This document shows, in pieces, positions 18,755 to 34,110 of a DNA stretch of 54,037 nt. Below the pieces are notes generated by a model. The model worked only from the letters and a program-made list of their open reading frames with translations, was not told the DNA's origin and ran no database searches. The position numbers and the translations under genes are program-made. The DNA lies in assembly GCA_001799285.1 (NCBI GenBank), contig MGTD01000032.1, forward strand, positions 1 through 54,037. Reading direction: 5' to 3'. The DNA comes from Deltaproteobacteria bacterium RIFOXYD12_FULL_56_24 (GTDB lineage Bacteria; Desulfobacterota; Desulfobulbia; Desulfobulbales; Desulfurivibrionaceae). Numbering within the stretch: the first letter of the stretch is position 1; every line of letters begins with the position of its first letter.

Positions 18755-20327
18755 CCTTCATCAGCTTGTAGGTGATGCTGTCCACCAGGGCCTGCCAGCT
18801 TGCCTCGATGATGTCCGGGGAAACCCCCACCGTACCCCATTGGCTGTCGCGGTCCCGGGATTCGATCAGCACCCGCACCCTGGCCTCGGTGCCGTGTTCG
18901 CTGGCCAGCACCCGCACCTTGTAATCCTGCAGCTCCATCTCCTTGAGGTTGGGATAAAACCTGGTCAGGGCCTTGCGCAGCGACTTGTCCAGAGCGTTGA
19001 CCGGGCCGTTGCCCAGGGCGGCGGTATGCACCTCCTCGCCGGCCACGGCCAGGCGGATGGTGGCCTCCTCCTGCAACACCCCGTCCGTGGTCTTCTGGCT
19101 CATCACTCGAAAGCCGTGCAGGTCGAAATATTTCTTCGGGGTTCCCATGGCCCGGCGCATGAGCAACTCGAACGACGCCTCGGCCCCTTCGTACTGAAAG
19201 CCCTGGTTTTCCAGGTCTTTCAATTCCTTGACGATGGCGCTGACCACAGGATCTTTGCTGTCCAGATCCAGACCGAATTTCCTCGCCTTGACCAGCACGT
19301 TGCTTTTGCCGGAAAGATCGGAGATCAGTACCCGCCGCACATTGCCCACCTTTTCCGGCTCCAGATGCTCGTAGGTCAGGGGGTTGCGCTGCACGGCGCT
19401 CACGTGGATGCCGCCCTTGTGGGCAAAGGCGGACTGGCCCACGTAAGGCTGGTACTTGTTGGGGGAAAGATTGGCCAGCTCGGAGACAAAGCGGGAAACC
19501 TCGGTGAGCCGGTGCAGGTTGGCGGCGGCCGTAAACTCATAGCCCATCTTCAGGGCCAGGGCCGGCATGATCGAGGTGAGGTTGGCGTTGCCGCAGCGCT
19601 CGCCAAAGCCGTTGGCCGTGCCCTGCACCTGGGAGGCACCTAAAGAGACGGCGATCAGGGAGTTGGCCACCGCGCACTCGGAATCGTTGTGGGCGTGGAT
19701 CCCGAACTGCACAGCCGCCTTATTTGCTTTAAGATGCGTCTTCACCGCCTCGATGATCGCAGCCAGCTCAGTGGGCAGGGTGCCGCCGTTGGTCTCGCAA
19801 AGCGCCAGGCAGTCGGCGCCGCCGGCAATGGCCCGATCCAGAGTGGCCAAGGCGTATTCCCGATTGGCCTTGAAGCCGTCGAAAAAGTGTTCGGCATCAT
19901 AAAAGAGATGCTGGACATGGGGCCGCAAGTACTTCAGCGACTCCTCGATGATCAGCAGGTTGTCGTCGAGCCCGATGCGCAGGGCATCGCGGACATGGAT
20001 GTCCCAGGTCTTGCCGAAGATGGTGATTCCCGGGGTTTTCGCCTCAATCAGGGCATTGAGGTTGGCATCCTGCTCCGCCGGGTTGGCAAACAGCCGGGTG
20101 GAGCCGAAGGCCGTAACCTTGGTATGCTTGAGCTCGTACTTGCGAATCTCCTTGAAGTACTCCACGTCCTTGGGGTTGGAGCCCGGCCAGCCGCCCTCGA
20201 CAAAGTCGATCCCCAGTTCGTCAAACTTGAGGGTGATGCGCAGCTTGTCCTCCACCGAGAGGTTGAAATTCTCGGCCTGGGTACCGTCCCGCAGGGTGGT
20301 GTCGTAGATGGTGACTTGATGTGTCAT
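18735..20327 (-). CDS. cimA: Citramalate synthase
   Basis: A 530-aa enzyme of the DRE-TIM/isopropylmalate synthase family. It condenses pyruvate and acetyl-CoA to citramalate, opening the threonine-independent route to isoleucine. Catalytic start [43 protein letters not shown], and a C-terminal LeuA-type regulatory dimer domain (about 390-520). The long CimA-type form distinguishes it from LeuA and NifV. It lies 9 nt downstream of lysC, pairing two branched amino-acid entry steps. Confidence 0.92.
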
Positions 20328-20336
20328 GCCCGTAAG

Positions 20337-21554
<1,218 letters not shown>

Positions 21555-21907
21555 TGCTGCCTGCTGCTCCTCATCTATATATTTATGTTGATAAAAATAT
21601 TAAAAGAATCTACTGAATTCCCCTCCCGCAAGGGGAGGGAAGAATCCGTTTAATTTTCTGACTGGGAAGAGCCGGAAAAAATTCGAAAAAGCAGTGTGCA
21701 ACAATTTGATATTTTTTTCAACCGAACAAATTACTTGAGGCATGATTTTCCCCATGGGTAAAGGCTAAGTATCCCGCCTGAAAAAAAAACAGGCAAAAGA
21801 AACTTGTAATACTCGTCCGATTTTGCTAAACAATACAAGCCTAATTAAGGCAGGCCATCCATATGAAGGCGTGAGTGTCCGCTATAATCCTATGGAAAGG
21901 AGTATTA
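21555..21907. other. Divergent intergenic region with a small hairpin
   Basis: A 353-nt AT-rich gap between lysC and the M23 peptidase gene. It holds a 7-bp hairpin, CCCTCCC/GGGAGGG, with a 5-nt loop at about 21621-21639. No T run follows on either strand, so it is not a convincing terminator. Promoters for both genes should lie here, but I cannot place them. No lysine riboswitch was recognised. Confidence 0.4.
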
Positions 21908-23338
21908 ATGGTAGAAAAAAACAAGTTCTTTGCCCTTATTCGTCAGACGTGCAAGTCCTCCCTTTACCGGGTATGCCCTCCGTGTCTGGCCGCCCTCTCC
22001 CGGGGTTTGGCCCGCTTTCGCAGTCACACCAACAGACATTTGGTTATCTTTGTAAATACCTCTCATTTTCTTACCCTCGGGGTTTCCCTCGCCTTGGTTG
22101 TCGCCTTTTTTCTCTCTGCTGTGGGTGGGCAACCAATCCCGAATAAGCACGATTCGCACGCCACCGGCGAAATCGAAGAATTGCTGCCCGCTGTTCGGGA
22201 GATTGTCGGGGAGATTCAACCTGGGGATTCGCTGACTTCCTCCTTCCGCACCAACGGGGTTGAGGAAGAGGTGCAGGCCTCGGTGATCAGCGCCTTTGAC
22301 GGCGTGGTCAATTTTCGGGAAATGAAGCCCAACGACCGCTACACCCTGACCCTTGATGACGACGGCAGTCTGCTCAAATGCCTGTACGAATCAGGTCCGC
22401 TTGAGGTCCATGCCATCGAGCGCACCCCCGATGGCTCTTTAACAGCCAAGAAACTCGATATCTCCCTTGATTGCCGGACGGTAAAGTTGCGGGGCAAGGT
22501 CGAATCCTCACTTTTTGCCGCCTTTGCCGCCTTCAAGGAAGATGCCAAGCTTACCTACAGCTTTGCCGACATCTTTGCCTCAAAGATCGATTTCAACACC
22601 GAGATCAGGTTTGGCGACACCTTTGAGCTGGTCTTTGAAAAATATTACAAAAACAACCAGTTCGTCGGCTACGGCAAGATCCTGGTCGCGCGGTACAACA
22701 GCAAGGAAGTCGGCTCCCTGGAGGGCTTTTATTTTGACCAGGGCGGAGAGAAATCCGCTTATTTCGATCACCGCGGTAACGAACTGGGCGAATCTTTTAT
22801 CCGCTCCCCTCTCCCCATGGCCAGGGTTTCTTCCGGTTTTTCCTACAACCGTCGTCACCCGGTTTTGAATATTGTCCGCCCCCACCTGGGGGTTGATCTT
22901 GCCGCGCCGATGGGCACCCCGATCATGGCCCCCTCCGACGGCCGGGTAAATTTTGCCGGCTGGAAAGGCGGCTATGGTAAGCACATAATCCTTGAGCATC
23001 AAGGCGGTTTAAAAACCTACTATGGCCATCTTTCCAAATTTGCCGGCAATATCAAAGCCGGGACCCGGGTGCAGCAAAAGCAGATTATCGGCTATGTCGG
23101 CTCCACCGGCATCTCCACCGGCCCGCATCTTGATTACCGCATGGCCAAGAACGGGTTGTTCATCAACCCCTTGAATATCAAGTTTCATCCGCGCTCCCAA
23201 CTGGCGGGAACCAAGCTGGTTCTTTTTCACCAGGAATTTAAAACACTTACCCAGTTGGCCAGTAGCCTGGATGATCCTAAGGTCATTATGGTGAAAAACG
23301 TGGTGGTAACTCCGGGCAACCCGGTCACCATGCTCTAA
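21908..23338 (+). CDS. M23-family peptidoglycan endopeptidase, membrane anchored
   Basis: About 476 aa. A single N-terminal TM/signal helix (about 50-75, LVIFVNTSHFLTLGVSLALVV) is followed by an OapA/LysM-like middle region and a LytM (peptidase M23) domain (about 310-430). Zinc motif HLGVD (H326, D330) is standard, and YYGHLS carries another His. The usual HxH motif reads GPHLDYRM, so Asp409 replaces the second His, a variant seen in some M23 subfamilies. It cleaves peptide cross-bridges in the wall if active. I chose ATG 21908 because AAAGGAG stands 5 nt before it, not the in-frame GTG at 21875. Confidence 0.88.
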   Translation: MVEKNKFFALIRQTCKSSLYRVCPPCLAALSRGLARFRSHTNRHLVIFVNTSHFLTLGVSLALVVAFFLSAVGGQPIPNKHDSHATGEIEELLPAVREIVGEIQPGDSLTSSFRTNGVEEEVQASVISAFDGVVNFREMKPNDRYTLTLDDDGSLLKCLYESGPLEVHAIERTPDGSLTAKKLDISLDCRTVKLRGKVESSLFAAFAAFKEDAKLTYSFADIFASKIDFNTEIRFGDTFELVFEKYYKNNQFVGYGKILVARYNSKEVGSLEGFYFDQGGEKSAYFDHRGNELGESFIRSPLPMARVSSGFSYNRRHPVLNIVRPHLGVDLAAPMGTPIMAPSDGRVNFAGWKGGYGKHIILEHQGGLKTYYGHLSKFAGNIKAGTRVQQKQIIGYVGSTGISTGPHLDYRMAKNGLFINPLNIKFHPRSQLAGTKLVLFHQEFKTLTQLASSLDDPKVIMVKNVVVTPGNPVTML

Positions 23339-23342
23339 CCCC

Positions 23343-23813
23343 TTGCCCTGCCATGCCCCTTTTCATATCGTCCTGGTCGAGCCGGAGATCCCCCCCAACA
23401 CCGGGAGCATCTCCAGGCTGTGCGGGGCCACGGACACCGTTCTCCATCTGGTCCGGCCCCTGGGCTTTTCCACCGATGACAAGCATCTGAAGCGCGCCGG
23501 TCTTGATTACTGGAAGTTTGTTGATATTCGCTACTGGGACAGTTTCGAAGAATTTCTCGCAGCCCAGGATGAGCTGCGGTTGCATTTTTTCACCACCAAG
23601 GTGGAGCGGCCGTATACCGAGGTGCACTACCAACCCGGTGATTATCTGATTTTCGGTCGCGAAACCAAAGGGCTGCCGGAGGAGATCATCAACCTCTATC
23701 GGGAACGCTGCGCCACCATCCCCATGAGCAACCCCAACATCAGGAGCATCAACCTGGGGATGGCTGCGGCAGTGGTGCTTTACGAGGCGATCCGCCAGCG
23801 GGAAAGAGCTTAA
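23343..23813 (+). CDS. trmL: tRNA (cytidine/uridine-34 2'-O)-methyltransferase
   Basis: A 156-aa SPOUT methyltransferase of the TrmL type that methylates the wobble ribose of tRNA-Leu. Motifs: IVLVEPEIPPNTGSISRLC, LIFGRETKGLPEE, and the knot segment PMSNPNIRSINLGMAAAVVL. Length is exactly right for TrmL. The start is uncertain: a TTG at 23343, only 4 nt after the peptidase stop, is the first in frame, and no AUG fits. It is probably co-transcribed with the M23 gene. Confidence 0.9.
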   Translation: MPCHAPFHIVLVEPEIPPNTGSISRLCGATDTVLHLVRPLGFSTDDKHLKRAGLDYWKFVDIRYWDSFEEFLAAQDELRLHFFTTKVERPYTEVHYQPGDYLIFGRETKGLPEEIINLYRERCATIPMSNPNIRSINLGMAAAVVLYEAIRQRERA

Positions 23814-23886
23814 AAAAAACGCCCTTGAGCTTCCGGCCTTTCGTTGTTCTCTTAAGGCCTTAAAGTGAAGGGGTAGCGCCGAGCGT

Positions 23887-25311
23887 GTGATATCAATGTC
23901 CACCCATGAAAGCGCAAACAGGGCTTGTTCTCAACCTAACCGGTTGTTGTCCAGGTGGCGGTTGTACGCCTTTGAATTCATGGGACTTTGGTCCTCCCCT
24001 CCCGCAAGGCGACATCACGGCCAGGATATTCGTCTTGCCTGTGCCATAGGCCTTCCCTTCGGGATATATTTTTCTATCTTTAATCTCACGCATGGCTTCA
24101 CGATTCTGGGCATCATCGAGGGTGTGTCTGTTCTGTTTTTTTTGCCGTTGGCGTATTTTTTATCCGGCCGTGAGCGGATGACTCTCCTGGCGGAAAGCCT
24201 GGTCCTGCTGTGCGTCACCACCATTTTCCTTGCCCTTTTTCACTACGGCGGCATTTCCGGGACCGGAATTTACTGGATTTTCAGCCTGCCGCTCACCGCA
24301 TTTTATGTTGCCGGTCAATTTCGTGGCTGGCTATGGTCTTTTGCCTTGCTCGTCTTGATAGGAATTGTCCAACCATTTCCTGGTTTTACCAAGATTAATC
24401 TCCTGCACTCCCAGCTTGCCCTACTTTATTACACCGCCATCTCCGCCTCGTTCAACATGCTACGCACCAAGTACTCGGCAAGATTGCACCTGCTGACTAT
24501 TGAACTTACCGCTACCCTTAAGGAACTAAGGGAAACCCAGGCCCAGATTGCCCAATCGGAGAAAATGGCAGCGGTGGGTCAACTGGTGGCCGGAGTGGCC
24601 CATGAGGTCAACAACACCACTAATTTTATCTCCGGCGCCCTGCCGCCCCTGGGAAAACGTCTTGCCGAGCTTGTTCTTCTGTTGGCTAACATTGAGGCGG
24701 ATGGTGCGCCGAAACTAAAAAAGATTGAAGAACTCAAACAAACCATTGAGCTGTTGCTGGGCAATATTCGGGAAGGGGCGCGGCGCACCTGCAAGATAGT
24801 TACGGATCTTAAAAATTTTTCCCGGCTTTATGACGACCTGTCCCAGCCTCTCGACATTAACGAGGGGCTGGAAACCACCCTCGCTCTGGTTACCCCGGAG
24901 TATAAATACAAAATGGAGGTCATCCGCGAGTTTTCCGCAGATCTGCCCGTGGTGTACGGTTCTCAGGGCCAGCTGAACCAGGTATTCATGAATATAATCA
25001 TCAACGCTTTTCAGGCCCAGCCGAACACGGGGTGTCTGTTGATTCGCACCTTCCGCAGAAAAGATACCGTCCATATCCTTTTTAAGGATGACGGTCCCGG
25101 TATCCCGCAGGAGATTAAGAACCGGATATTCGAACCATTTTTTACCACTAAAGAGGTTGGCGTGGGGACTGGCCTTGGTTTGAGCGTCTCCTTTGGCATC
25201 ACCAATAAACACCGGGGCAGGATTATGGTGCGGAGCGAGCCAGGCCAAGGTGCGGAATTTGAAGTGATCCTGCCGGCAGGGCCGGATCCCAATATCCGCC
25301 CGCGAAATTGA
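23887..25311 (+). CDS. Multi-pass membrane histidine kinase (kinase 1 of the RiPP locus)
   Basis: A 474-aa sensor kinase with five or six TM helices (about 48-195) and no HAMP or large periplasmic loop. A coiled coil (TATLKELRETQAQIAQSEK) is followed by the H-box GQLVAGVAHEVNNTTNF (His239) and a HATPase with NIIINAFQAQP, FKDDGPGIPQEI and GTGLGLSVSFGITNKHRG. The core is strikingly like that of the kinase at 29902, so the two are paralogues of one locus. It starts at GTG 23887 or ATG 23896; the ribosome binding site is weak. Its stop is 7 nt from the convergent maturase gene. No receiver is encoded beside it. Confidence 0.88.
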   Translation: MISMSTHESANRACSQPNRLLSRWRLYAFEFMGLWSSPPARRHHGQDIRLACAIGLPFGIYFSIFNLTHGFTILGIIEGVSVLFFLPLAYFLSGRERMTLLAESLVLLCVTTIFLALFHYGGISGTGIYWIFSLPLTAFYVAGQFRGWLWSFALLVLIGIVQPFPGFTKINLLHSQLALLYYTAISASFNMLRTKYSARLHLLTIELTATLKELRETQAQIAQSEKMAAVGQLVAGVAHEVNNTTNFISGALPPLGKRLAELVLLLANIEADGAPKLKKIEELKQTIELLLGNIREGARRTCKIVTDLKNFSRLYDDLSQPLDINEGLETTLALVTPEYKYKMEVIREFSADLPVVYGSQGQLNQVFMNIIINAFQAQPNTGCLLIRTFRRKDTVHILFKDDGPGIPQEIKNRIFEPFFTTKEVGVGTGLGLSVSFGITNKHRGRIMVRSEPGQGAEFEVILPAGPDPNIRPRN

Positions 25312-25318
25312 TCATTAA

Positions 25319-26653
25319 TCAGGCGGCGGGATTAGGGGTAGCAGCCTCCTTGGCTGCGTACCGGTATTTAAGATCCTGCATCAACATTTTCTCCAGAGTC
25401 GCATCCAGAAACTCCTTCTGGCAGTCCACCCGTGCCATGCTCCCCTCACGTTGAAAGACCATGTAGCGGCAGCCGCCGAAGCAGAGCGGCAGGTATTTGC
25501 ATTCCCGGCATTTTTTCTCCTTTCGCCAGTGGTTGTGGCAATATTTTGTCTGCCAACCCTCCTGGATGCCGTTTATGATATCGCCGACTTCGTAACCCTG
25601 ATGGCCGATCATGGTGATGCATTTATAGATGAGCCCATCGTGATCAATGGTAAAGGCATCATCAATGTCCACCATGCAGGGGGCGGGCTGCATTTTGGCG
25701 AGGGGAAAACCGCGTTTTCCCAGCTCGTCCCTGATAAAAATGGCCGCTTCGATCAGCCATGGCTCGGCGGCCGAACAGCAACCGCCGCTGAACTCCGAGT
25801 TGGCGAACTGGTCGTTGATCTGCATCGCCGGATAAAACTGAACCTGCTGCAGATCATCGGGTTTAAGTCCTTCCGAAAGGAGCCGGTCGAGGAGGGCGGG
25901 AAACAGCGGGTAGTTTTCTCGGGTGTAGTTGCCGACCAGATTGATGGGCATAAGCTTGCAGCACGCCTTGACATTGGCGAGCACTGTGGCAAAGGAGGGC
26001 TCCCCCGACTTAAAGGGGCGGAAGCGATTGTGGTTTTCTTCCGGGCCGTCAAGGGTAATCTTTGCCGATTTGAGGCCGAGAGTGAGCATCTCCTCGACGA
26101 CTTTCGGACTAAGAAGCGAACCGTTGCTCACCAGATGGAAGGCGAACTTACCTTCCCGTTCCTCGGTGAATGGCTTGAGTTCGCGGGTCAGATGCCTGAT
26201 CCGGTCGAGGTAAAGTAGGGTTTCTCCGCCGTAGAAATTCAACACCAGCTTTTCGGTTTCCGGGTTGAAGCGTGCCTTTAGGTAGGCAATCACCTTTTCG
26301 GCGGTGGCCTGCTCCATGGCGCCGCCTTCTTTCTTACTCCCCTCGTAGCAGTAAACACAGGAAAAGTTGCAGGCCATCCCGAGAATGATCGAGGCCCGAA
26401 TGGCCCGGTTGATCCGGTTGACCTCGGCAAGCAGGCCAAGGGCGCAAGACAGTTCCTCGTCCAGGCTTTCCACTGCCATTCCCAGCCTGGCCATGACCGG
26501 GGCGTACTCAGTAGGCACCTTGCCCTTGGCCAGTTCCCCGGCGATCTCCTTCGGGAACATGGCGAAGGAGCACGTCCTGGTGGAAAACAACAGGTTCTGC
26601 GTTTCGCCGTTATGGTCGGCAGGGAAGTGTTTAAGATAAAATGATGGCTTCAT
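25319..26653 (-). CDS. SPASM-domain radical-SAM peptide maturase (geopeptide-maturase-like)
   Basis: A 444-aa radical-SAM enzyme that probably modifies the small peptide encoded just upstream. N-terminal part (1-90) may bind the precursor leader. The cluster site is GMACNFSCVYCYEGS (C95, C99, C102). The barrel follows (FYGGETLLYLDRI, HLVSNGSLLS, KITLDGPEENHNRFRPF). The C-terminal SPASM domain has PAPCMVDIDDAFTIDHDGLI and CRECKYLPLCFGGC, typical ligands for two extra 4Fe-4S clusters. The pattern recalls the putative geopeptide maturases of Geobacter. I start at MKPSFY; a GTG at 26690-26692 would add 13 residues. A hairpin lies between it and the precursor gene. Confidence 0.85.
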   Translation of the reverse strand: MKPSFYLKHFPADHNGETQNLLFSTRTCSFAMFPKEIAGELAKGKVPTEYAPVMARLGMAVESLDEELSCALGLLAEVNRINRAIRASIILGMACNFSCVYCYEGSKKEGGAMEQATAEKVIAYLKARFNPETEKLVLNFYGGETLLYLDRIRHLTRELKPFTEEREGKFAFHLVSNGSLLSPKVVEEMLTLGLKSAKITLDGPEENHNRFRPFKSGEPSFATVLANVKACCKLMPINLVGNYTRENYPLFPALLDRLLSEGLKPDDLQQVQFYPAMQINDQFANSEFSGGCCSAAEPWLIEAAIFIRDELGKRGFPLAKMQPAPCMVDIDDAFTIDHDGLIYKCITMIGHQGYEVGDIINGIQEGWQTKYCHNHWRKEKKCRECKYLPLCFGGCRYMVFQREGSMARVDCQKEFLDATLEKMLMQDLKYRYAAKEAATPNPAA

Positions 26654-26659
26654 GATGGT

Positions 26660-26691
26660 TGCCGTGAGAAGGGAGTGCCCTCCCCACGGCA
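26660..26691 (-). promoter_or_regulatory. RNA hairpin between RiPP precursor and maturase genes
   Basis: TGCCGTG (26660-26666) pairs with CACGGCA (26685-26691), and inside it GGGAG pairs with CTCCC around a 4-nt loop, giving a two-tier stem. No T run follows on the minus strand. It sits between the precursor stop (26698) and the maturase start, so it fits a stabilising or processing hairpin or a leaky attenuator that keeps precursor RNA above maturase RNA. Confidence 0.6.
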
Positions 26692-26697
26692 CATTGT

Positions 26698-26823
26698 TCA
26701 GTCAACGGTGGCAGCAGTGGACGGAGCCGGGGTGTTCGGCCGACAACATGCCGGGTTGGCAGCAATTTCCTTGGGGGTGACACCTTCTTCGAAAACAACC
26801 ACCTGTTCCTTTTGTGTTCCCAT
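26698..26823 (-). CDS. Putative RiPP precursor peptide (geopeptide-like), 41 aa
   Basis: A small ORF with a near-perfect ribosome binding site (AGGAGG, 8 nt before the ATG). The peptide begins MGTQKEQVVVFEEGVTPKEI, an acidic amphipathic leader-like half, and ends AANPACCRPNTPAPSTAATVD, with a Cys-Cys pair, three prolines and a Thr/Ser/Ala-rich tail. It has no signal peptide. It lies directly upstream of a SPASM radical-SAM enzyme and directly downstream of a TonB receptor, with a hairpin on each side. That arrangement is typical of RiPP precursors. The modification and activity are unknown. Confidence 0.75.
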   Translation of the reverse strand: MGTQKEQVVVFEEGVTPKEIAANPACCRPNTPAPSTAATVD

Positions 26824-26860
26824 GATATTTTCCTCCTTGCTTTGTGTAGGGTTGAACAAA

Positions 26861-26875
26861 GGGCTCGGTGAGCCC
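26861..26875 (-). terminator. Short hairpin upstream of the precursor gene, possible leaky terminator
   Basis: On the minus strand GGGCTC-ACC-GAGCCC is followed by TTTGTT, 37 nt before the precursor ATG and 30 nt after the TonB receptor stop. The stem is only 6 bp and the T run is broken, so partial termination or RNA end protection is more likely than a full stop. Confidence 0.5.
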
Positions 26876-26905
26876 GGTAGCACAGTTAAAACAGGACAGC
26901 CTCGT

Positions 26906-28762
26906 TCAAAAACGAACCGTAACACCCGCCTTCATCCAGCGGCCGGCGGTTTGAAAATCGTAGTCGGTGTACTGAGAACCGCTGAACAGATTGTTGACCG
27001 AAAAGAAGAGATCGTAGCCAATCTCCTGAAAACGGAAATGCCTGGACATGGTCATATCCCAGATGATCGTGTCGTATTTATGGGTGATGGCGTTTCGCCG
27101 CTGTTCTGCCCAGAAATAATGAGCGCCCAGCCTGCCGGAATAGAGGTCGGAATCGTACTTCAAGAGCAGATTGGCCACCTGTTGATCGTCGTTTTCAAAC
27201 CGGTTACCATACCAGTCAGTCATGGAATCGTAATAATCGGTATAAGTATAAGTGTAATTGAGCGCTGCGGAAAGGTTGTTCCATTTGGCGGTCTCGGCCT
27301 CAAGCTCCAGGCCGGTGTGGGTAGTCTTACCGGTATTGACATAAGCCCCCCAAAAGTGGGTGGGGACGCTGCTGTCCCAAGACCAGGAATCTTTTTCCCG
27401 GTTCTGGAACAGAGTGCTCTTCATCCGGAGAAAAGGCAGGGAGGTGTTTTCGAGACCGACTTGATAAGACCAGGCCTTGCTTGGCTGGAGGGTGGTCGAA
27501 TAGGTGAGGAGGGCGGAGGGCGGCCGTCTGAATCCCCTGGCCACTCCGAGGCGAAGAAGGTTGTTTGACGAAAGCTGCCAGGTCAGACCAAGGCTGGGGC
27601 TCAGCATATCATCGGCGTTCAGATTCTGATCGTAGCGTAAACCGGGAGTAAGTGCCCACTTGCCAAAATTGATGGTGTCGTTGATGAAAAACGCCCAGAA
27701 TTCATCAAAGATCCTGTCCGGCACCCCTTTGTCCTCATAGTAATTACGATGGTGTTCGCCCCCGACTACCAGACTGTTGCTGGCATTTTTCCAGTTAAAG
27801 TAGCCCTCCACAGAACGGAGCGAGGCTTCCCGGCTCATCCAGGGATGCCTGTATTCACGAGCGAAATTCTGATAGCTCAAATGGTAATTGCTGTTTTCTC
27901 CGGGAGCGCCGTCGAGGCTCAAAATCTGGAACTGATCGTCTTCTTCGGTGTAGAATCGTTCCCCCCAGAAATTGCGGGATGACTGCACATAGTAGGGGTT
28001 AAAGCGGCCCATGCTTGCGGTGAGGGTCGAGGCGAAGGGCAGATCGGCGGAGAGCTTGCCGTAAAAGGTTTCGAAATCGCGGGAGCGATCGAAATCCTCA
28101 CTTACCAGGCCATCGCTGTTCAGGCCGCCGGCATGGAAATAGTAGCCGATCTTCTTGATCTTGCCGGCAACTTCGCCGTTGTATGCCTGGGTATTGCCTT
28201 CCCCGTAAACTGCGGTAAGAGAGCCTTCGGGCCGAAGGTTCTTGCCGGTGCCCTTGGTGATGATGTTGATTACCCCGCCCAGGGAAGAACCCCAGGTGGA
28301 GGAAGCCGCTCCCTTGATGATCTCGATCCGTTCGATGATCGAAACCGGAATCGCGTTGGTTTCGTTGAATTCCGAGTCAATAAAGGACCAGCGCATCCCG
28401 TCCAGGAGCACGGTCACATGCTCGTAATCCGAATTGTGAACATGAAGACTGCTTGGCCCGCCGGGATCCCGAGTTGTGGACATAATGAACATCCCGGCGA
28501 CATATCTAAGCACATCCGCCACCGTATGGGCGCGCAAGGCCTCGATCTCTGCGGCGGTGACGATGCTGACGTTCTCCGCAACCTGGCTCATGGGCTTGGG
28601 AGCGCGGGTGGCGACCTCGACCAGCTGGGAATCATCGAAGTACATGGTCATGGGAGCTGAAGCCCCCCGCTCGGCTCCGCTGCTTAAGCCGGGCAGCAGG
28701 GCGAGGAGAAAAAAGGCTGTTCCGGCGGAGGTGCGACTAACAAAAAAAATTGGACGCAGCAT
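26906..28762 (-). CDS. TonB-dependent outer-membrane receptor
   Basis: A 618-aa beta-barrel receptor. Signal peptide 1-29 (cleavage near LSSGA). A TonB box candidate lies around VEVATRAP. The plug domain has AENVSIVTAAEIEALRAHTVADVLRYVAG and GGVINIITKGTG. The barrel of alternating amphipathic strands ends in GVTVRF with the terminal Phe expected for assembly. Related receptors import siderophores, cobalamin or peptides. Here it is the first gene before the RiPP precursor and maturase on the same strand, suggesting uptake or sensing linked to that peptide (inference). No cobalamin riboswitch was found upstream. A GGGAG ribosome binding site precedes the ATG. Confidence 0.9.
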   Translation of the reverse strand: MLRPIFFVSRTSAGTAFFLLALLPGLSSGAERGASAPMTMYFDDSQLVEVATRAPKPMSQVAENVSIVTAAEIEALRAHTVADVLRYVAGMFIMSTTRDPGGPSSLHVHNSDYEHVTVLLDGMRWSFIDSEFNETNAIPVSIIERIEIIKGAASSTWGSSLGGVINIITKGTGKNLRPEGSLTAVYGEGNTQAYNGEVAGKIKKIGYYFHAGGLNSDGLVSEDFDRSRDFETFYGKLSADLPFASTLTASMGRFNPYYVQSSRNFWGERFYTEEDDQFQILSLDGAPGENSNYHLSYQNFAREYRHPWMSREASLRSVEGYFNWKNASNSLVVGGEHHRNYYEDKGVPDRIFDEFWAFFINDTINFGKWALTPGLRYDQNLNADDMLSPSLGLTWQLSSNNLLRLGVARGFRRPPSALLTYSTTLQPSKAWSYQVGLENTSLPFLRMKSTLFQNREKDSWSWDSSVPTHFWGAYVNTGKTTHTGLELEAETAKWNNLSAALNYTYTYTDYYDSMTDWYGNRFENDDQQVANLLLKYDSDLYSGRLGAHYFWAEQRRNAITHKYDTIIWDMTMSRHFRFQEIGYDLFFSVNNLFSGSQYTDYDFQTAGRWMKAGVTVRF

Positions 28763-28957
28763 GTGGATCTCCCAAGCAAATAATTAAATATTGCGCATAA
28801 TCCTAACAGTTTAGGCGCTCCCCCCTGCTCTCCCCTTGATTAAAGACGGCCCTGCCGCGCATTTAACCCTGCAATCTCTGCTTGCACAATACCGTGCAAG
28901 GCTCTAGGATTACTGCATGTGTTTGACACCTATCATTTCCAACGGGTCTATCCACCG
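28763..28957. promoter_or_regulatory. Divergent control region between receptor and binding-protein genes
   Basis: It holds a perfect 7-bp inverted repeat with a 6-nt spacer, CTTGCAC/GTGCAAG (28881-28900), of operator size. It is framed by TAATCCTA (28798-28805) and its complement TAGGATTA (28905-28912). Both divergent transcription units of the RiPP locus start around here, so it is the natural place for shared regulation. Promoter boxes could not be fixed. Confidence 0.45.
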
Positions 28958-29905
28958 GTGAAAAAGTGTACCCCCCTCCTGGCGCTGTTGTTTCTGGCCT
29001 TGTCCGTTCCGGCCTGGGCGCTGGACTGCGTTCTGCTTCAGTCTTCGCCGCTCAAGCCCTATGAGGAGGCCCGCCAGGGCTTTGAAAATGGTTGGTTCGG
29101 CCAGCAGCATTCATCCTCTGGGCCGAAAAGTATTATCAGCGGCAACAACGTTACACATATTTTGCTTTCCGAGCAACAGACAACAAACGATTTTTCCCTG
29201 AAAAAACAACTGCAAGGGGCCCGACTGGTGGTGACCATCGGCGACCAGGCCCTGGAGTTTGTTAGAGGCCTGCGGGGGGTACCGGTGATCTATCTCCTGG
29301 CGCCCTCGGCCCCACCATCCCTGCCCAAAAACTTTGTCGGCATCGAGATGCGCATCCAGCCTTCCCGGCAGCTGGCCGCAATCAACCGGGCGCTGCCCAA
29401 GGTCCGCACCATCGGCGTCCTCTACAACCCGAGTAAATCCGGCCGCTGGGTGCAGGAGGCGCTGCTTTCGCCGGTTAACTCGGTCCAGACCATGCTTTTC
29501 AAAAAGTTCGACAAGCAGACCGGCGTGCCCGGCGCCCTTCAGGAGCTGACCGGCAAGATCGACGCCTACTGGCTGCTCCCCGATCCACAGCTAATCACGC
29601 CCCAGGTCTTGGGCAGCCTTTTTGAATTCTCCATGCGATACCGCGTTCCCATCATTAGCTTTTCGGAGAAATATCTGGCCCAGGGTGCTGCCTTGGCAGT
29701 GACCTTCGACACCGCCGACCTGGGGGCCCAGGCCGCCGAGCTTGGAGCGAATCTCGCTCGCAACGGCCTGGACCAGGACACCCCCGCTCTCATCCCGCCC
29801 CGCAAGGTCAGGGTGCTGGCCAATCCCACGGTGCTTATGCGATTGGACTTCCCCTTCGACCCATCCGGTATCGACGAAACCTATATCCCGGAGGTCGGAC
29901 GATGA
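28958..29905 (+). CDS. ABC-type substrate-binding protein (COG2984-like), sensor partner
   Basis: A secreted periplasmic binding protein of about 315 aa. Starting at GTG 28958 it has a good signal peptide (VKKCTPLLALLFLALSVPAWA, cut before LDC); a GTG at 28919 would add 13 residues with no benefit. The body shows the two-lobe COG2984 pattern (LVVTIGDQALEFVRGLRGVPVIYLLAP, KVRTIGVLYNPSKSGRW, DAYWLLPDPQLITPQ, RVPIISFSEKYLAQGAAL). No ABC permease is encoded nearby. Its stop overlaps the kinase start by 4 nt, which suggests a ligand-presenting role for that kinase. Confidence 0.82.
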   Translation: MKKCTPLLALLFLALSVPAWALDCVLLQSSPLKPYEEARQGFENGWFGQQHSSSGPKSIISGNNVTHILLSEQQTTNDFSLKKQLQGARLVVTIGDQALEFVRGLRGVPVIYLLAPSAPPSLPKNFVGIEMRIQPSRQLAAINRALPKVRTIGVLYNPSKSGRWVQEALLSPVNSVQTMLFKKFDKQTGVPGALQELTGKIDAYWLLPDPQLITPQVLGSLFEFSMRYRVPIISFSEKYLAQGAALAVTFDTADLGAQAAELGANLARNGLDQDTPALIPPRKVRVLANPTVLMRLDFPFDPSGIDETYIPEVGR

Positions 29906-31653
29906 ATCTTCTGAATTCGCTTTGGCTGAGGAGAAAATACTGGTGCCCGCATGGCTACCGCCTGAAGCTGTTCCTCTCCTTTCTCGGGGTTATGATCCTC
30001 TGCGGCGCCGGCCTGATTGTGCTTTTCGGCCAGATCCAGAGGCAGACCCTGCTGGAGGAGACCCACAGCCGAGGGAGATACGTTGCCTCGATCCTGGCCC
30101 GCAGCCTGGAAACCCCGCTTTTTTTTATGAACAGGGCGCAAATCAACGCGAATGTGGAGGCGGTTCTCGGAGTAACCGACCTCGTTGCCGTGTTCATCTA
30201 TGATAAGGATGGCCAGCGGATTTTTTCCCGTGTTTCGCCCCAGGCAGGCGCGTCCGCTTTCGGGCCGGAGGGATTGGCCCAGCTCGCCAAAATCATGACT
30301 GAATTCTTTATCCCAGGCGAGGAGGAGGTCAGCATTCATTGGCATCAGGGGCAGTTCCTTGCGTTCGACAAAAGGGTCATCAGCTCCGAACCGTCCAGCG
30401 ATCAGGCCTCTCTATTTTTTGACACCGGTGAGCAGCCAGAGAACGTGGTAACCGATCTTGGCGGCGTGCAGCTTGTTTTCAGCCTCGCCAATTATCAACA
30501 TAGCCTAGGGCAGATCATCCGGCATGCGGCCCTGGTCTTCCTCGCCTTTCTGCCCATTTCTCTGCTTATCGCTTTCCTGTTGGCCAGGGATGTGGTCAAG
30601 CCCTTACGCACTCTGGTCGAAGGCCTGCGAATCCGGCTGGGTAAGAGAGAAGAAGAAGAAGAAGAAGAAGAAGAAGAAGAAGAAGCACCCGATGAACTCG
30701 GCCAGCTCGACATCCGTCTGAAGCAACTGGTCGGCCGGCTTGACCAATCCTTTGCCACCATCGCGCAAATGAACGAAGGGCTGGAGCAACAAGTGGTTGT
30801 CCGCACCGCCGAATTAACCAAGGCCATGCAGGAGCTCAAGGAGACCCAGGCCCAAATAGCGCAGACGGAAAAAATGGCTGCCGTTGGCCAGTTGGTGGCC
30901 GGGGTGGCCCACGAGGTCAACAACACCACCAATTTTGTCACCGGCGCCCTGGCCCCCCTGGAAAAACGGCTGGCGGAGCTGCGAATGCTCGTGGCTGACC
31001 AGTCTAAGCAGGCGGAGCCGGAGCCTGATCGACCGGATCGGCCGGATCGGCCGGATCGGATTAAAGAGTTGATGCAAAGCATCGACCTGCTTCTCGGCAA
31101 TATCCGGGAAGGGGCCCGGCGCACCAGCAAGATCGTCACCGATCTTAAGAATTTTTCCCGGCCCGACAAAGACCGCGTTCACCAGATCGACATCAATCAT
31201 TGTCTGGAAAGCACCCTGGCCCTGGCCATGCCTGAGTACCGGTACCGGATCGAGCTGGTCAAGGAGTTCGCCCCGGATCTGCCCACGATTGCCGGTTCCC
31301 AGGGGCAATTATGTCAGGTGTTCATGAATCTGATCATCAACGCGGTCCACGCCCAGCCGGACAAGGGTTTTTTGCTGATTCGCACCTTCCGCGCCGAGGA
31401 TGGGGTGCATGTGGTGTTTGCCGATAAGGGGCCGGGTATTCCCAAAAAAATTCAGGCGCGAATATTCGAGCCTTTTTTCACCACCAAGAAAATTGGCACG
31501 GGCCTGGGCTTGAGCATTTCCTTCGGCATCATCAATAAACACCGAGGCACAATCCTGGTGCGGAGCGAGCCTGGCCAGGGCGCGGAATTTGAGATTATCT
31601 TGCCGGAAAAACCGGAACCGGTCATAATGCAGCATGAAGAGGATGAAAAATGA
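29902..31653 (+). CDS. Membrane histidine kinase with poly-Glu linker (kinase 2 of the RiPP locus)
   Basis: A 583-aa sensor kinase. TM1 about 22-44, periplasmic sensor about 45-205, TM2 about 207-230, HAMP, then twelve consecutive glutamates (250-261) and a coiled coil. H-box GQLVAGVAHEVNNTTNF (His337). A PDRPDRPDRPDR repeat lies between the two DHp helices. The HATPase has NLIINAVHAQP, FADKGPGIPKKI and GTGLGLSISFGIINKHRG. It overlaps both the binding-protein gene and the receiver gene by ATGA, so the three are coupled. The catalytic core is nearly the same as in the kinase at 23887. Confidence 0.9.
   Translation: MNLLNSLWLRRKYWCPHGYRLKLFLSFLGVMILCGAGLIVLFGQIQRQTLLEETHSRGRYVASILARSLETPLFFMNRAQINANVEAVLGVTDLVAVFIYDKDGQRIFSRVSPQAGASAFGPEGLAQLAKIMTEFFIPGEEEVSIHWHQGQFLAFDKRVISSEPSSDQASLFFDTGEQPENVVTDLGGVQLVFSLANYQHSLGQIIRHAALVFLAFLPISLLIAFLLARDVVKPLRTLVEGLRIRLGKREEEEEEEEEEEEAPDELGQLDIRLKQLVGRLDQSFATIAQMNEGLEQQVVVRTAELTKAMQELKETQAQIAQTEKMAAVGQLVAGVAHEVNNTTNFVTGALAPLEKRLAELRMLVADQSKQAEPEPDRPDRPDRPDRIKELMQSIDLLLGNIREGARRTSKIVTDLKNFSRPDKDRVHQIDINHCLESTLALAMPEYRYRIELVKEFAPDLPTIAGSQGQLCQVFMNLIINAVHAQPDKGFLLIRTFRAEDGVHVVFADKGPGIPKKIQARIFEPFFTTKKIGTGLGLSISFGIINKHRGTILVRSEPGQGAEFEIILPEKPEPVIMQHEEDEK
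30649..30684 (+). repeat. (GAA)12 microsatellite in the kinase HAMP linker
   Basis: Twelve identical GAA codons in a row give a Glu12 tract just after HAMP. The use of a single codon implies recent slippage rather than selection on the protein alone. Length changes by whole units keep the frame. Confidence 0.9.
31024..31059 (+). repeat. 9-bp tandem repeat coding Pro-Asp-Arg x4
   Basis: Four in-frame units of about CCGGATCGG encode PDR repeats inside the kinase DHp region. The first unit differs by two bases (CCTGATCGA). The kinase at 23887 has no such repeat at the matching place. Confidence 0.85.
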
Positions 31654-32156
31654 GTAAGAAAAAAGGCCGAGTACTCTATGTGGACGATGAGGAAATCAAT
31701 CTGATCAACTTCCGGGAAACCCTGCGGGATGATTTCGAGATCTTTATCGCCTGTTCCGGCCATGAGGCGCTGGCCCTTCTCGAGCGGGAGGGGGAGATGG
31801 CCCTGGTGGTCACCGACCAGCGGATGCCGAGGATGAGCGGCATTGAACTGTTGGCCATGGTAAGGGAGCTGTACCCGGACACCATCCGGATGATCATCAG
31901 CGCTTACACCGAGATCCACGAGCTGATCGAGGCCATCAACAAGGTAGAGGTTTACCGGTATTTCGTCAAGCCCTGGCAGGAAGACCAGTTGCGTCTCAGT
32001 ATCGGCAATGCGGTGGGCTCCTATAATCTGGGCCAGGAAATCAAGGATTTCGTTGATGAAGGAAGAAGGCATATGGCGGAAAGGCAACGGAATTTTGAGG
32101 AAAATGTAACTATCCAGCTCAAGGCCGGAAACAAACAAAAACAACCCAAACCGTAA
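31650..32156 (+). CDS. Single-domain response regulator with repeat-derived C terminus
   Basis: A 168-aa receiver protein: acidic pocket VDDEE (11-15), phospho-acceptor Asp56 (TDQRMPRMSG), switch Ser/Thr in ISAYTE, and Lys in YRYFVKPW. No DNA-binding or enzymatic domain follows, so it likely relays phosphate or binds a partner. The ATG overlaps the kinase stop (ATGA). The last 17 residues (VTIQLKAGNKQKQPKP and stop) are encoded by a dispersed repeat also found at 53.1-53.3 kb, so the original C terminus was probably replaced. Confidence 0.88.
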   Translation: MSKKKGRVLYVDDEEINLINFRETLRDDFEIFIACSGHEALALLEREGEMALVVTDQRMPRMSGIELLAMVRELYPDTIRMIISAYTEIHELIEAINKVEVYRYFVKPWQEDQLRLSIGNAVGSYNLGQEIKDFVDEGRRHMAERQRNFEENVTIQLKAGNKQKQPKP

Positions 32157-32303
32157 CTATCCAGCAGTGCCGTAGCTGCTAGGCAGAAGCCTGCGACGTG
32201 TGCTTGGTGCCCATGAGCAGGCTGATATAGCTGAGTTGAGCAGCTTGTCTGCTCAAACGAAACTTATACCCTCTGGGTGCAACAACGCAGATGCGGTGCT
32301 GCT
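32106..32303 (+). repeat. Family B MITE-like repeat, copy 1 (interrupted by repeat C)
   Basis: From GTAACTATCCAGCTC at 32106 through a second GTAACTATCCAGCAG at 32153 to GCAGATGCGGTGCTGCT at 32303 it matches the reverse complement of 53147-53288 almost base for base. About 55 nt (32228-32281) interrupt the match and equal hairpin repeat C. The terminal inverted motif GTAACTATYCAGCAG resembles family A ends. No transposase ORF is present. It overlaps the end of the first receiver gene and the first codons of the second. Confidence 0.85.
32228..32281 (+). repeat. Hairpin repeat C, copy 1, nested inside family B
   Basis: About 54 bp with the hairpin GAGCAG-CTTGT-CTGCTC, ending CCCTCTGGGTGCA. 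It is a close match to the reverse complement of about 48111-48160. Its borders coincide with the break in the family B repeat, so it inserted into that repeat. Confidence 0.8.
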
Positions 32304-32950
32304 TGCTGTTTATTGATGACGAGGAGATCAACCGGAACAACTTCCAGCAAACCTTTGCCGACGAGTACGAGATCCTGCTGGCCGCTTCGGGGGAGGAGGC
32401 TCTGGAGATCATGGCCCGGGAAGACGATCTCGCCCTGATCCTCTCCGACCAGCGGATGCCTGGCCTTTCCGGGGTTGAGATTCTTGCCCGGGCCCGAGAG
32501 CTTGTCTCGCAGGCGGAACGGATCATGATTACCGGCTATTCCGACCCGGACGACATCATGGCCGCCATCAATCAGGGGCAGGTGTACAATTATATCCTCA
32601 AGCCCTGGGCCAGCGGCGAGCTGCGTATCGCTATCATCCAGGCGGTGGAGCGGCATCAGCTGAAAAAGGAAAATCGGCTTCTGCTATCAGCCCTGGAAAA
32701 AAAGAATGCCGAGCTTGAAGAGCTGGTCCGGACCAGGACTCAGGAGCTGAAAAATCTCCAAAGCCTCCTGCCCATCTGCTCATACTGCCGGAAGATTCGG
32801 GACGACAAGAATGCCTGGCACGAGCTGGAGACTTATCTGCGCCGACACAATGACATCCTCTTTACCCATGGCATCTGTCCGCACTGCTACGAAAACATGA
32901 TGGGGGAACTGGCGGATATGGGGCAACGAAAACAACCTGACCAGGAGTAA
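32291..32950 (+). CDS. Response regulator with C-terminal Cys-rich (zinc-ribbon-like) segment
   Basis: A 219-aa protein: receiver (1-125; FIDDEE, Asp53 in LSDQRMPGLSG, Lys in NYILKPW), coiled coil (KKNAELEELVRTRTQELK), then the motif LLPICSYCRKIRDDKNAWHE, with THGICPHCYENMM further on (CxxC plus CPxC). That tail is common in signalling proteins of this phylum and may bind metal. Its ATG and first four codons (MRCC) lie inside the family B repeat, and no ribosome binding site is visible, so the native start was probably lost or replaced. It is the likely second partner of the two kinases. Confidence 0.82.
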   Translation: MRCCLLFIDDEEINRNNFQQTFADEYEILLAASGEEALEIMAREDDLALILSDQRMPGLSGVEILARARELVSQAERIMITGYSDPDDIMAAINQGQVYNYILKPWASGELRIAIIQAVERHQLKKENRLLLSALEKKNAELEELVRTRTQELKNLQSLLPICSYCRKIRDDKNAWHELETYLRRHNDILFTHGICPHCYENMMGELADMGQRKQPDQE

Positions 32951-32952
32951 GC

Positions 32953-34110
32953 CTATCTCTTATCCTTGGCCAGGGACAGGGCAAGCCGAGCCGCCCGTAC
33001 CGAGGCCCCTGGGCCGCCCAGCTGTTCCCGCACCTCGGCCAGACCGGCCAGCATGCGAGTGCGCTCTGCCTGGTTTGCCACCAGGCGCACGGTAGCAGCG
33101 GCTATTTTTTCCGGCACGGCCGCATCCTGCAGCAACTCCGGCACCACCTTCCGCTCGGCCACCAGATTGACCAGGGATGCATATTGTACCTTGATCAGCC
33201 GCCGACCCAAAAAATAGGTGAGCGGCGAAACCTTGTAAGAAATAACCATGGGTACCTCCAAAATGGCCAGCTCCAGGGAAACCGTCCCCGAGGCCGCCAT
33301 CACCGCATCGCAGGCCGCCATAAGTTCGTAGCGGTTTTCCCTGATCACCCGTACCTCGACCCCAGCCTCAGCCAAGCCGTTGGCCAGCAGATCAGCCTCG
33401 CTCAGGGTGGGGGCCAGGGGCAGGAGAAAGAACACCTTACCCATCTGCTCTTCTATCAGTTTTGCCGCCGCCAGAAAGGTTGGGAGCATTGCGGCTATTT
33501 CCCGCCTGCGACTGCCGGGCAGGATGCCGATCACCTTACTCTCCGGGGCAATGCCCAGGGAAGCTAAAAACTCGGTCCGGGGCCTGGCGGCGCGCACCGT
33601 GTCCAGGAGGGGGTGGCCCACATACTCCACCTTCATCCCGCGTTTCTGGTAAAACTCCTTTTCAAAAGGCAGGATCACGGCCAGCCGGTCCACCAGCTTT
33701 TTGATGGTCTTGACCCGGCCGCTGCGCCAGGCCCAGACCTGCGGACTGATGTAATAGAACACCGGGATGCCGAGCAGCTTGGCCTTTTTGGCCAGGATCA
33801 GGTTGAAGTCCGGATAGTCGATGAGGATCAAAAGGTCGGGGGGCTGCTCGCGGAGCCGTTTTTCCAGGGCGCGCATGGCCTCGCGAATGAAACGGAAATG
33901 ACTGATAACCTCGATGATGCCGACCACGGCCAGACGGGAGGAATCGTAAAGGATCTCCATCCCGCAGGAGGTAAGGGCCGGACCGCCGATGCCGCAGACC
34001 GCCAGATTGGGGGCCTGTTCCCGCATGGCGGCGACGAGCTTGGCTCCGTGCATGTCGCCGGAGGCCTCCCCGGCTACAAGCATGATTTGGAGGCTATTCA
34101 GGTTTGCCAT
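32953..34110 (-). CDS. lpxB: Lipid-A-disaccharide synthase
   Basis: A 385-aa glycosyltransferase (GT19) that joins UDP-diacylglucosamine and lipid X in lipid A synthesis at the inner membrane. Motifs: MLVAGEASGDMHGAKLV, FYYISPQVWAWRSGRVK, ILPFEKEFYQKRGM, IGILPGSRRREI and AASGTVSLELAI. Length is normal. It ends 2 nt from the convergent response-regulator gene and follows a Gfo/Idh/MocA gene by 12 nt, as in lpx clusters of related bacteria. Confidence 0.94.
   Translation of the reverse strand: MANLNSLQIMLVAGEASGDMHGAKLVAAMREQAPNLAVCGIGGPALTSCGMEILYDSSRLAVVGIIEVISHFRFIREAMRALEKRLREQPPDLLILIDYPDFNLILAKKAKLLGIPVFYYISPQVWAWRSGRVKTIKKLVDRLAVILPFEKEFYQKRGMKVEYVGHPLLDTVRAARPRTEFLASLGIAPESKVIGILPGSRRREIAAMLPTFLAAAKLIEEQMGKVFFLLPLAPTLSEADLLANGLAEAGVEVRVIRENRYELMAACDAVMAASGTVSLELAILEVPMVISYKVSPLTYFLGRRLIKVQYASLVNLVAERKVVPELLQDAAVPEKIAAATVRLVANQAERTRMLAGLAEVREQLGGPGASVRAARLALSLAKDKR

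What the first reader, a model, noticed from the sequence alone, without database searches (positions are those of the whole stretch)
26698..26823. Unannotated-size peptide with Cys-Cys core as the probable substrate
A 41-codon ORF with a near-ideal ribosome binding site, an acidic leader-like half and a Cys-Cys/Pro/Thr-rich tail sits between receptor and maturase. Gene finders often miss this size. The adjacent cysteines and the lack of a signal peptide fit a precursor for thioether or other radical chemistry.
Basis: partly seen in the sequence, partly recalled or inferred. Interest (0 to 1): 0.75.

Follow-up and report, generated by a model that had tools for sequence, protein, structure and literature searches.

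The report
Cysteine-pair precursor peptide, geopeptide type
A tiny, easily missed gene very probably encodes the starting peptide that a neighbouring radical enzyme modifies, and the peptide, enzyme, an outer-membrane receptor and sensor genes recur together in many related anaerobic bacteria, hinting at a self-made chemical that the cell takes back up and senses.

Summary
The 41-codon ORF at 26698-26823 (-) is real: strong ribosome-binding site, MGTQKEQVVVFEEGVTPKEIAANPACCRPNTPAPSTAATVD. The next gene is a radical SAM/SPASM enzyme above NCBIfam's cut-off for "geopeptide radical SAM maturase". Among 257 genomes of the order, the peptide profile hits 64 of 64 with the maturase and 4 of 193 without; of those 4, one has a maturase cut by the contig end and one a remnant. 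A profile built outside the window's family ranks this ORF first in its genome (E 4.6e-8). Of 98 distinct relatives, 96 have Cys-Cys and 98 the second Cys; K/R lies 8 residues later in 58 of 96, but not here. A hairpin separates peptide and maturase in 59 of 82 loci (z below -2). A TonB receptor (94 of 104 anchors), periplasmic binding protein (72) and histidine kinase (65) recur. The kind is already named (TIGR04229/TIGR04280), but the peptide model misses this member. Chemistry and function are untested; I favour an exported, recaptured, sensed ligand. A receptor-specificity test was negative.

The parts
26698..26823 (-). Precursor peptide gene, 41 codons plus stop; N-terminal leader-like block VVVFEEG...IA, Cys26-Cys27, Pro/Thr/Ala-rich tail
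   Evidence: Translation; out-of-family profiles E 1.2e-8 in the window and 4.6e-8 in the genome
26832..26838 (-). Ribosome-binding site AAGGAGG, 8 nt before the ATG
   Evidence: Read; upstream strings
26660..26691 (-). RNA hairpin between peptide stop and maturase start, 14 base pairs, no U tract
   Evidence: z -4.75 against 200 shuffles; same position folds at z below -2 in 59 of 82 loci, 13 of 63 and 4 of 96 in two controls
25319..26692 (-). Radical SAM/SPASM maturase, geopeptide type; listed from GTG at 26692, likely start ATG at 26653
   Evidence: TIGR04280 464 bits, cut-off 400; PF04055; three CxxxCxxC and seven SPASM cysteines present
26906..28762 (-). TonB-dependent receptor upstream of the peptide
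   Evidence: PF00593 and PF07715 above cut-off; receptor near 94 of 104 anchors
28919..29905 (+). Periplasmic binding protein, divergent from the receptor
   Evidence: PF04392 44.5 bits, cut-off 25.9; near 72 of 104 anchors
29902..31653 (+). Histidine kinase, overlaps the binding-protein gene by 4 nt
   Evidence: PF02518; near 65 of 104 anchors
31650..32156 (+). Receiver-domain response regulator, overlaps the kinase gene by 4 nt
   Evidence: PF00072
32291..32950 (+). Second receiver-domain response regulator, possibly of the same group
   Evidence: PF00072; membership of the group is inference

Best explanation
The ORF is the precursor of a radical-SAM-modified peptide (RiPP) of the geopeptide kind. 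Shown here by comparison: it is a conserved gene tied to the TIGR04280 maturase, with an N-terminal block (V/I-L-x-x-G ... V/I-A), a Cys pair whose second Cys does not vary in the set, and a tail of 8-14 residues after the pair in 90 of 98 peptides. Inferred: the N-terminal half is the leader that the maturase binds; the SPASM enzyme acts at or around the Cys pair, above all the second Cys; the hairpin after the peptide gene lets more peptide than enzyme be made; a protease encoded elsewhere cuts off the leader; the product leaves the cell (MFS transporters sit beside some relatives, none was seen here) and is taken back through the TonB receptor; the periplasmic binding protein with the histidine kinase senses it or its cargo. 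The confidence given is for the precursor claim with modification at the Cys region; for the exported and recaptured ligand I give about 0.5.
For: Peptide profile hits 64 of 64 maturase genomes and 4 of 193 others; 44 of the 64 gave no row to the profile. Out-of-family profiles find the window ORF. Peptide found at 97 of 104 anchors. Leader and core distances correlate with maturase distance with the receptor held constant, 0.39 and 0.31, p 0.001. Second Cys 98 of 98, first Cys 96 of 98 (first searches asked for CC, so biased upwards). Hairpin between the genes. Maturase above its cut-off with all radical SAM and SPASM cysteines. Receptor in 8 of 8 genus mates with the maturase and 1 of 9 without.
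Against: No biochemistry. NCBIfam's peptide model TIGR04229 gives the window peptide no match. G224 keeps binding protein, receptor and peptide with no maturase in the stretch seen, nor a genome match at 1e-60. The window peptide lacks the common P at +4 and K/R at +8. Core and receptor distances show no link once the maturase is held constant (0.04, p 0.26). No MFS match in window 20001-34000 and MFS near only 11 of 104 anchors; the binding protein is missing near 17 of 86 well-covered anchors.
Confidence: 0.9

Rival explanations
1. Product as metallophore: the modified Cys region binds a metal outside the cell; receptor, binding protein and kinase import and sense the loaded form, as methanobactin does for copper (recalled).
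For: TonB receptor near 94 of 104 anchors, MFS near 11; four MFS proteins tested match PF05977, transmembrane secretion effector; Cys pair.
Against: No metal-linked gene recurs in the neighbourhood; no link of core to receptor distance; the binding-protein family is nearest to solved proteins that I recall as amino-acid binders.
Confidence: 0.4
2. Product as signal: the modified peptide is a pheromone read by receptor, binding protein and kinase, without a metal.
For: Binding protein, kinase and receiver genes overlap by 4 nt in the window; 58 of 86 well-covered anchors have receptor, binding protein, kinase and peptide; G224 keeps receptor, binding protein, kinase and peptide without a maturase.
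Against: Core and kinase, binding-protein or receptor distances show no link beyond the maturase. A signal peptide of this kind taken in by a TonB receptor is not known to me (recalled).
Confidence: 0.25
3. Product as a redox cofactor or electron carrier, in the manner of PQQ or mycofactocin (recalled).
For: Radical SAM/SPASM maturation; hosts are related to anaerobic sulfur and metal metabolisers (lifestyle recalled).
Against: No oxidoreductase recurs beside the cassette among the families listed; sequence of the tail varies, unlike a fixed cofactor.
Confidence: 0.15
4. Product as an antimicrobial peptide.
For: Variable tail after a conserved leader block.
Against: No immunity-type gene recurs; a TonB receptor and kinase cassette is unusual for a bacteriocin (recalled).
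Confidence: 0.08
5. The peptide is not a maturase substrate but a small metal-binding or regulatory protein that shares the operon.
For: G224 has the peptide without a maturase and G124 only a maturase remnant.
Against: 64 of 64 co-occurrence; peptide and maturase distances correlate; two peptides before one maturase in L182.
Confidence: 0.04

Closest known systems
Geopeptide (TIGR04229) with geopeptide radical SAM maturase (TIGR04280), NCBIfam
   Same: Maturase over the curated cut-off; leader block and Cys pair of the same pattern; relatives in the same cassette reach 29.6 bits with TIGR04229
   Different: The window peptide has no TIGR04229 match; longer Pro/Thr-rich tail, no P at +4 or K/R at +8
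Ranthipeptide and SCIFF maturases (CteB 5wgg; PapB family NF047865)
   Same: SPASM enzymes with detectable similarity: 5wgg E 4e-13, PapB model E 3.3e-36
   Different: PapB model 125 bits against a cut-off of 340; few D/E in the core; Cys pair in place of spaced Cys (recalled for those families)
Methanobactin system
   Same: By analogy only (recalled): short peptide with Cys in the core, modifying enzyme, TonB receptor and exporter
   Different: Methanobactin uses an MNIO enzyme, not radical SAM (recalled); here the enzyme is radical SAM

Membership tests
Geopeptide system (TIGR04280/TIGR04229) | Adjacent maturase passes the TIGR04280 curated cut-off | tested here: met
   464 bits against 400
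Geopeptide system (TIGR04280/TIGR04229) | Precursor passes the TIGR04229 curated cut-off (30 bits) | tested here: not met
   No match for the window peptide; nearest relative 21.2 bits, best of ten others tried 29.6; 0 of 9 genomes pass, some of them Geobacter-like in gene order. So it is filed as a diverged relative, not as a TIGR04229 member
Geopeptide system (TIGR04280/TIGR04229) | Peptide beside the maturase and conserved with it | tested here: met
   97 of 104 anchors; 64 of 64 genomes
Radical SAM/SPASM peptide maturases | CxxxCxxC plus seven SPASM cysteines | tested here: met
   Present in the window protein; 94 or 95 of 95 aligned maturases keep each; TIGR04085 53 bits, cut-off 27
Ranthipeptide | Thioether from Cys to side-chain carbon of an acceptor, often D/E (recalled) | tested here: inconclusive
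   Bond not testable here; D/E at +1..+8 in 11 of 98
RiPP in general | Shown modification of a ribosomal peptide and leader removal | not testable with these tools
   Needs mass spectrometry

The most novel reading that the evidence does not exclude
The geopeptide is a self-made, radical-modified Cys-pair ligand that is exported, recaptured through its own TonB receptor and read by a periplasmic binding protein with a histidine kinase: a closed make, release, recapture and sense loop (metallophore or pheromone) spread through the Desulfobacterota, and to my knowledge (recalled) the first such loop built on a radical SAM peptide.
Probability: 0.35. Interest if true: 0.8.

Novelty: new member of a known kind. 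Interest (0 to 1): 0.52.

Why it matters
Geopeptide has a name in NCBIfam, but three searches of the held open-access library by name (geopeptide, TIGR04280, TIGR04229) found no paper; most subscription papers are not held. None of the peptides tried reached the TIGR04229 cut-off. The survey gives a wider definition of the precursor (V/I-L-x-x-G block, Cys-Cys, often K/R eight residues on), a hairpin that may set the peptide-to-enzyme ratio, and a receptor, binding-protein and kinase neighbourhood. Together they make product, uptake and sensing directly testable.

Tried and rejected
An apparent binding-protein/kinase fusion in L100 holds an unread base and garbled sequence at the join and is not counted. 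Three maturases (L168, L170, L171) have a C-terminal extension of roughly 250-290 residues; the one tested, from L171, has no Pfam match. A link between receptor and core distances was tested and not found. Rfam gave nothing up to E 0.1 at 22000-34000. The G209 hit of the peptide profile (E 0.0056) lacks the leader block and any TonB, binding-protein or maturase match in the 6 kb fetched (kinase domains only) and is taken as chance. The consensus promoter scan was no richer than shuffles. Literature: PMC4289311 was seen only as passages; its Geobacter text concerns lasso peptides. Haft and Basu 2011 is not held. The other searches gave listings without a paper to the point, or nothing.

Full report
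OBSERVATION. The ORF at 26698-26823 (-) translates to MGTQKEQVVVFEEGVTPKEIAANPACCRPNTPAPSTAATVD. AAGGAGG lies 8 nt upstream of its ATG. It starts 82 nt after the TonB receptor gene and ends 44 nt before the likely maturase ATG at 26653, all on the minus strand.

NEIGHBOURS. The downstream protein matches TIGR04280, geopeptide radical SAM maturase, with 464 bits (cut-off 400) over the full model. The upstream protein is a TonB-dependent receptor (PF00593, PF07715). Divergent from it lie a periplasmic binding protein (PF04392), a histidine kinase and a receiver protein, each gene overlapping the next by 4 nt. Convergent with the maturase is a second histidine kinase, 23887-25311.

SURVEY. TIGR04280 at E 1e-60 or better occurs in 64 of 257 genomes of the order, 61 with a match over the cut-off, and at 1e-80 or better in 35 of 395 genomes drawn from the phylum, 31 over the cut-off. 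At the looser 0.001 all 27 family genomes and 12 of 14 control genomes ring, as for any radical SAM model, but no control passes the cut-off. One scan of named genomes gave two relatives, a Desulfocapsa and a Desulfobulbaceae MAG (Desulfocapsa is in Desulfobulbales). I fetched 101 stretches around these maturases.

PEPTIDES. A search by Cys-Cys, then a profile over 24,417 reading frames, gave 100 peptides, 98 distinct. Of the 104 anchors 97 have one. Without one: L069 and L124 (maturase cut by the contig end), L179 and L180 (short upstream sequence), and L126, L183 and L187 (maturases below the cut-off). The peptide of L186 was taken by eye; the profile did not hit it. In L070, L071, L074, L173 and L177 the peptide lies about 1-2 kb upstream, in the last four with an MFS gene between. 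In L174 it is on the other strand. L182 has two peptides before one maturase.

ANATOMY. Counted from the second Cys over 98 distinct peptides: V/I at -17 in 82, L at -16 in 69, G at -13 in 67, A at -6 in 68, Cys at -1 in 96, Cys at 0 in 98, P at +4 in 54, K/R at +8 in 58 of 96; 40 end exactly at +8 and 90 have 8-14 residues after the second Cys. The two without the first Cys, L116 and L118, came from the profile search, also end at +8 and lack K/R there. Because the first searches asked for CC, the Cys figures are biased upwards. The window peptide and its nearest relative share CCRPN(T/S)PAPS, have neither P at +4 nor K/R at +8, and have longer tails.

LINK TO THE MATURASE. A 25-row peptide profile over the same 257 genomes hits 68: 64 of 64 with a maturase and 4 of 193 without. 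Twenty of the 64 gave a row to the profile; the other 44 did not (my count). Of the four extras, in G125 the maturase runs off the contig, G124 has a maturase remnant, G224 keeps receptor, binding protein, kinase and peptide but shows no maturase in the 10 kb seen, and G209 is a weak hit taken as chance. In 69 loci (from 76, after removing maturases over 90% identical) peptide distances correlate with maturase distances when receptor distance is held constant (core 0.31, leader 0.39, both p 0.001), but not with receptor distances when the maturase is held constant (0.04, p 0.26; 0.10, p 0.11), nor, in 34 loci, with binding protein (-0.01, p 0.54) or kinase (0.08, p 0.17). The data tie peptide to enzyme and give no support for receptor specificity towards the core.

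INDEPENDENT CHECK. With the window, its family and its nearest relative left out, 86 peptides give a model that hits the window ORF at 1.2e-8 (next 0.12), and 20 such peptides give a model that ranks it first in the whole genome at 4.6e-8 (next 0.06). A Shine-Dalgarno-like motif precedes 99 of 100 peptide genes, but starts were chosen partly by it.

HAIRPIN. The RNA between peptide stop and maturase start folds better than dinucleotide shuffles: mean z -3.15, 59 of 82 loci below -2, against 13 of 63 receptor-to-peptide gaps and 4 of 96 stretches inside the maturase gene (gaps outside 20-160 nt were left out, 20-200 for the receptor control). In the window it is a 14-pair stem (z -4.75) without a U tract; some relatives have one. 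I read it as a partial terminator or stabiliser that raises peptide over enzyme; that is inference.

CASSETTE. A receptor match lies near 94 of 104 anchors, binding protein near 72, kinase near 65, MFS near 11. With at least 3.6 kb upstream in hand, 58 of 86 have receptor, binding protein, kinase and peptide; 17 of 86 lack the binding protein. Apart from antisense readings of the maturase, no other family in the cluster listing reaches more than 10 loci. In Geobacter-like gene orders (L154-L159, L161-L163; label inferred from high TIGR04280 scores) the receptor and its partners are divergent from peptide and maturase. In the genus the receptor (1e-60) is in 8 of 8 genomes with the maturase and 1 of 9 without. 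Four transporters tested match PF07690 and PF05977 above cut-off. No MFS match lies in window 20001-34000.

ENZYME. The three CxxxCxxC cysteines are in 95 of 95 aligned maturases, the seven SPASM cysteines in 94 or 95, and an eighth, Cys292 counted from the ATG, in 89. The best solved relative is 5wgg, E 4e-13. Thioether chemistry is plausible, but no acceptor residue is conserved, so I leave the bond open.

KNOWN OR NEW. NCBIfam also holds TIGR04229, geopeptide (22 positions, cut-off 30 bits). Six of 25 profile members match it at E up to 1, best 1.8e-4; the window peptide does not. L154 reaches 29.6 bits. None of nine genomes tried passes its cut-off, and 7 of 14 controls ring below it. So the kind is named, its reach is wider than the model, and the window peptide is a diverged relative. 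Searches of the held library for geopeptide, TIGR04280 and TIGR04229 found no paper; most subscription papers are not held.

VERDICT. What the product is and does remains open; the neighbourhood favours a released and recaptured ligand.

Noticed in passing
window 28881-28900: Palindrome CTTGCACAATACCGTGCAAG between the receptor and binding-protein genes; L060, L062, L063 and L068 hold the same layout with matching changes on both arms (CTTGCGC-N6-GCGCAAG), so it may be an operator.
   Followed up: partly
window about 30647-30685: Run of GAA codons (poly-Glu) in the histidine kinase gene, a possible slippage-prone repeat; a short repeat of GGATCGGCC-like units follows near 31030-31060.
   Followed up: no
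window 23887-25311: A second histidine kinase, similar to the one at 29902-31653, is convergent with the maturase.
   Followed up: no
L168, L170, L171: Maturases with a C-terminal extension of roughly 250-290 residues; the L171 extension has no Pfam match.
   Followed up: partly
L116 and L118: Precursors that keep only the second Cys (GC and NC in place of CC) and still end 8 residues later, beside maturases above the cut-off.
   Followed up: partly
L194 (G224) and L192 (G124): Receptor, binding protein, kinase and peptide kept while the maturase is absent nearby (G224) or only a remnant (G124).
   Followed up: partly
L183 and L187: Maturases below the TIGR04280 cut-off sit beside similar family-5 solute-binding-protein genes (PF00496 shown for L183), without a TonB receptor match.
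   Followed up: no
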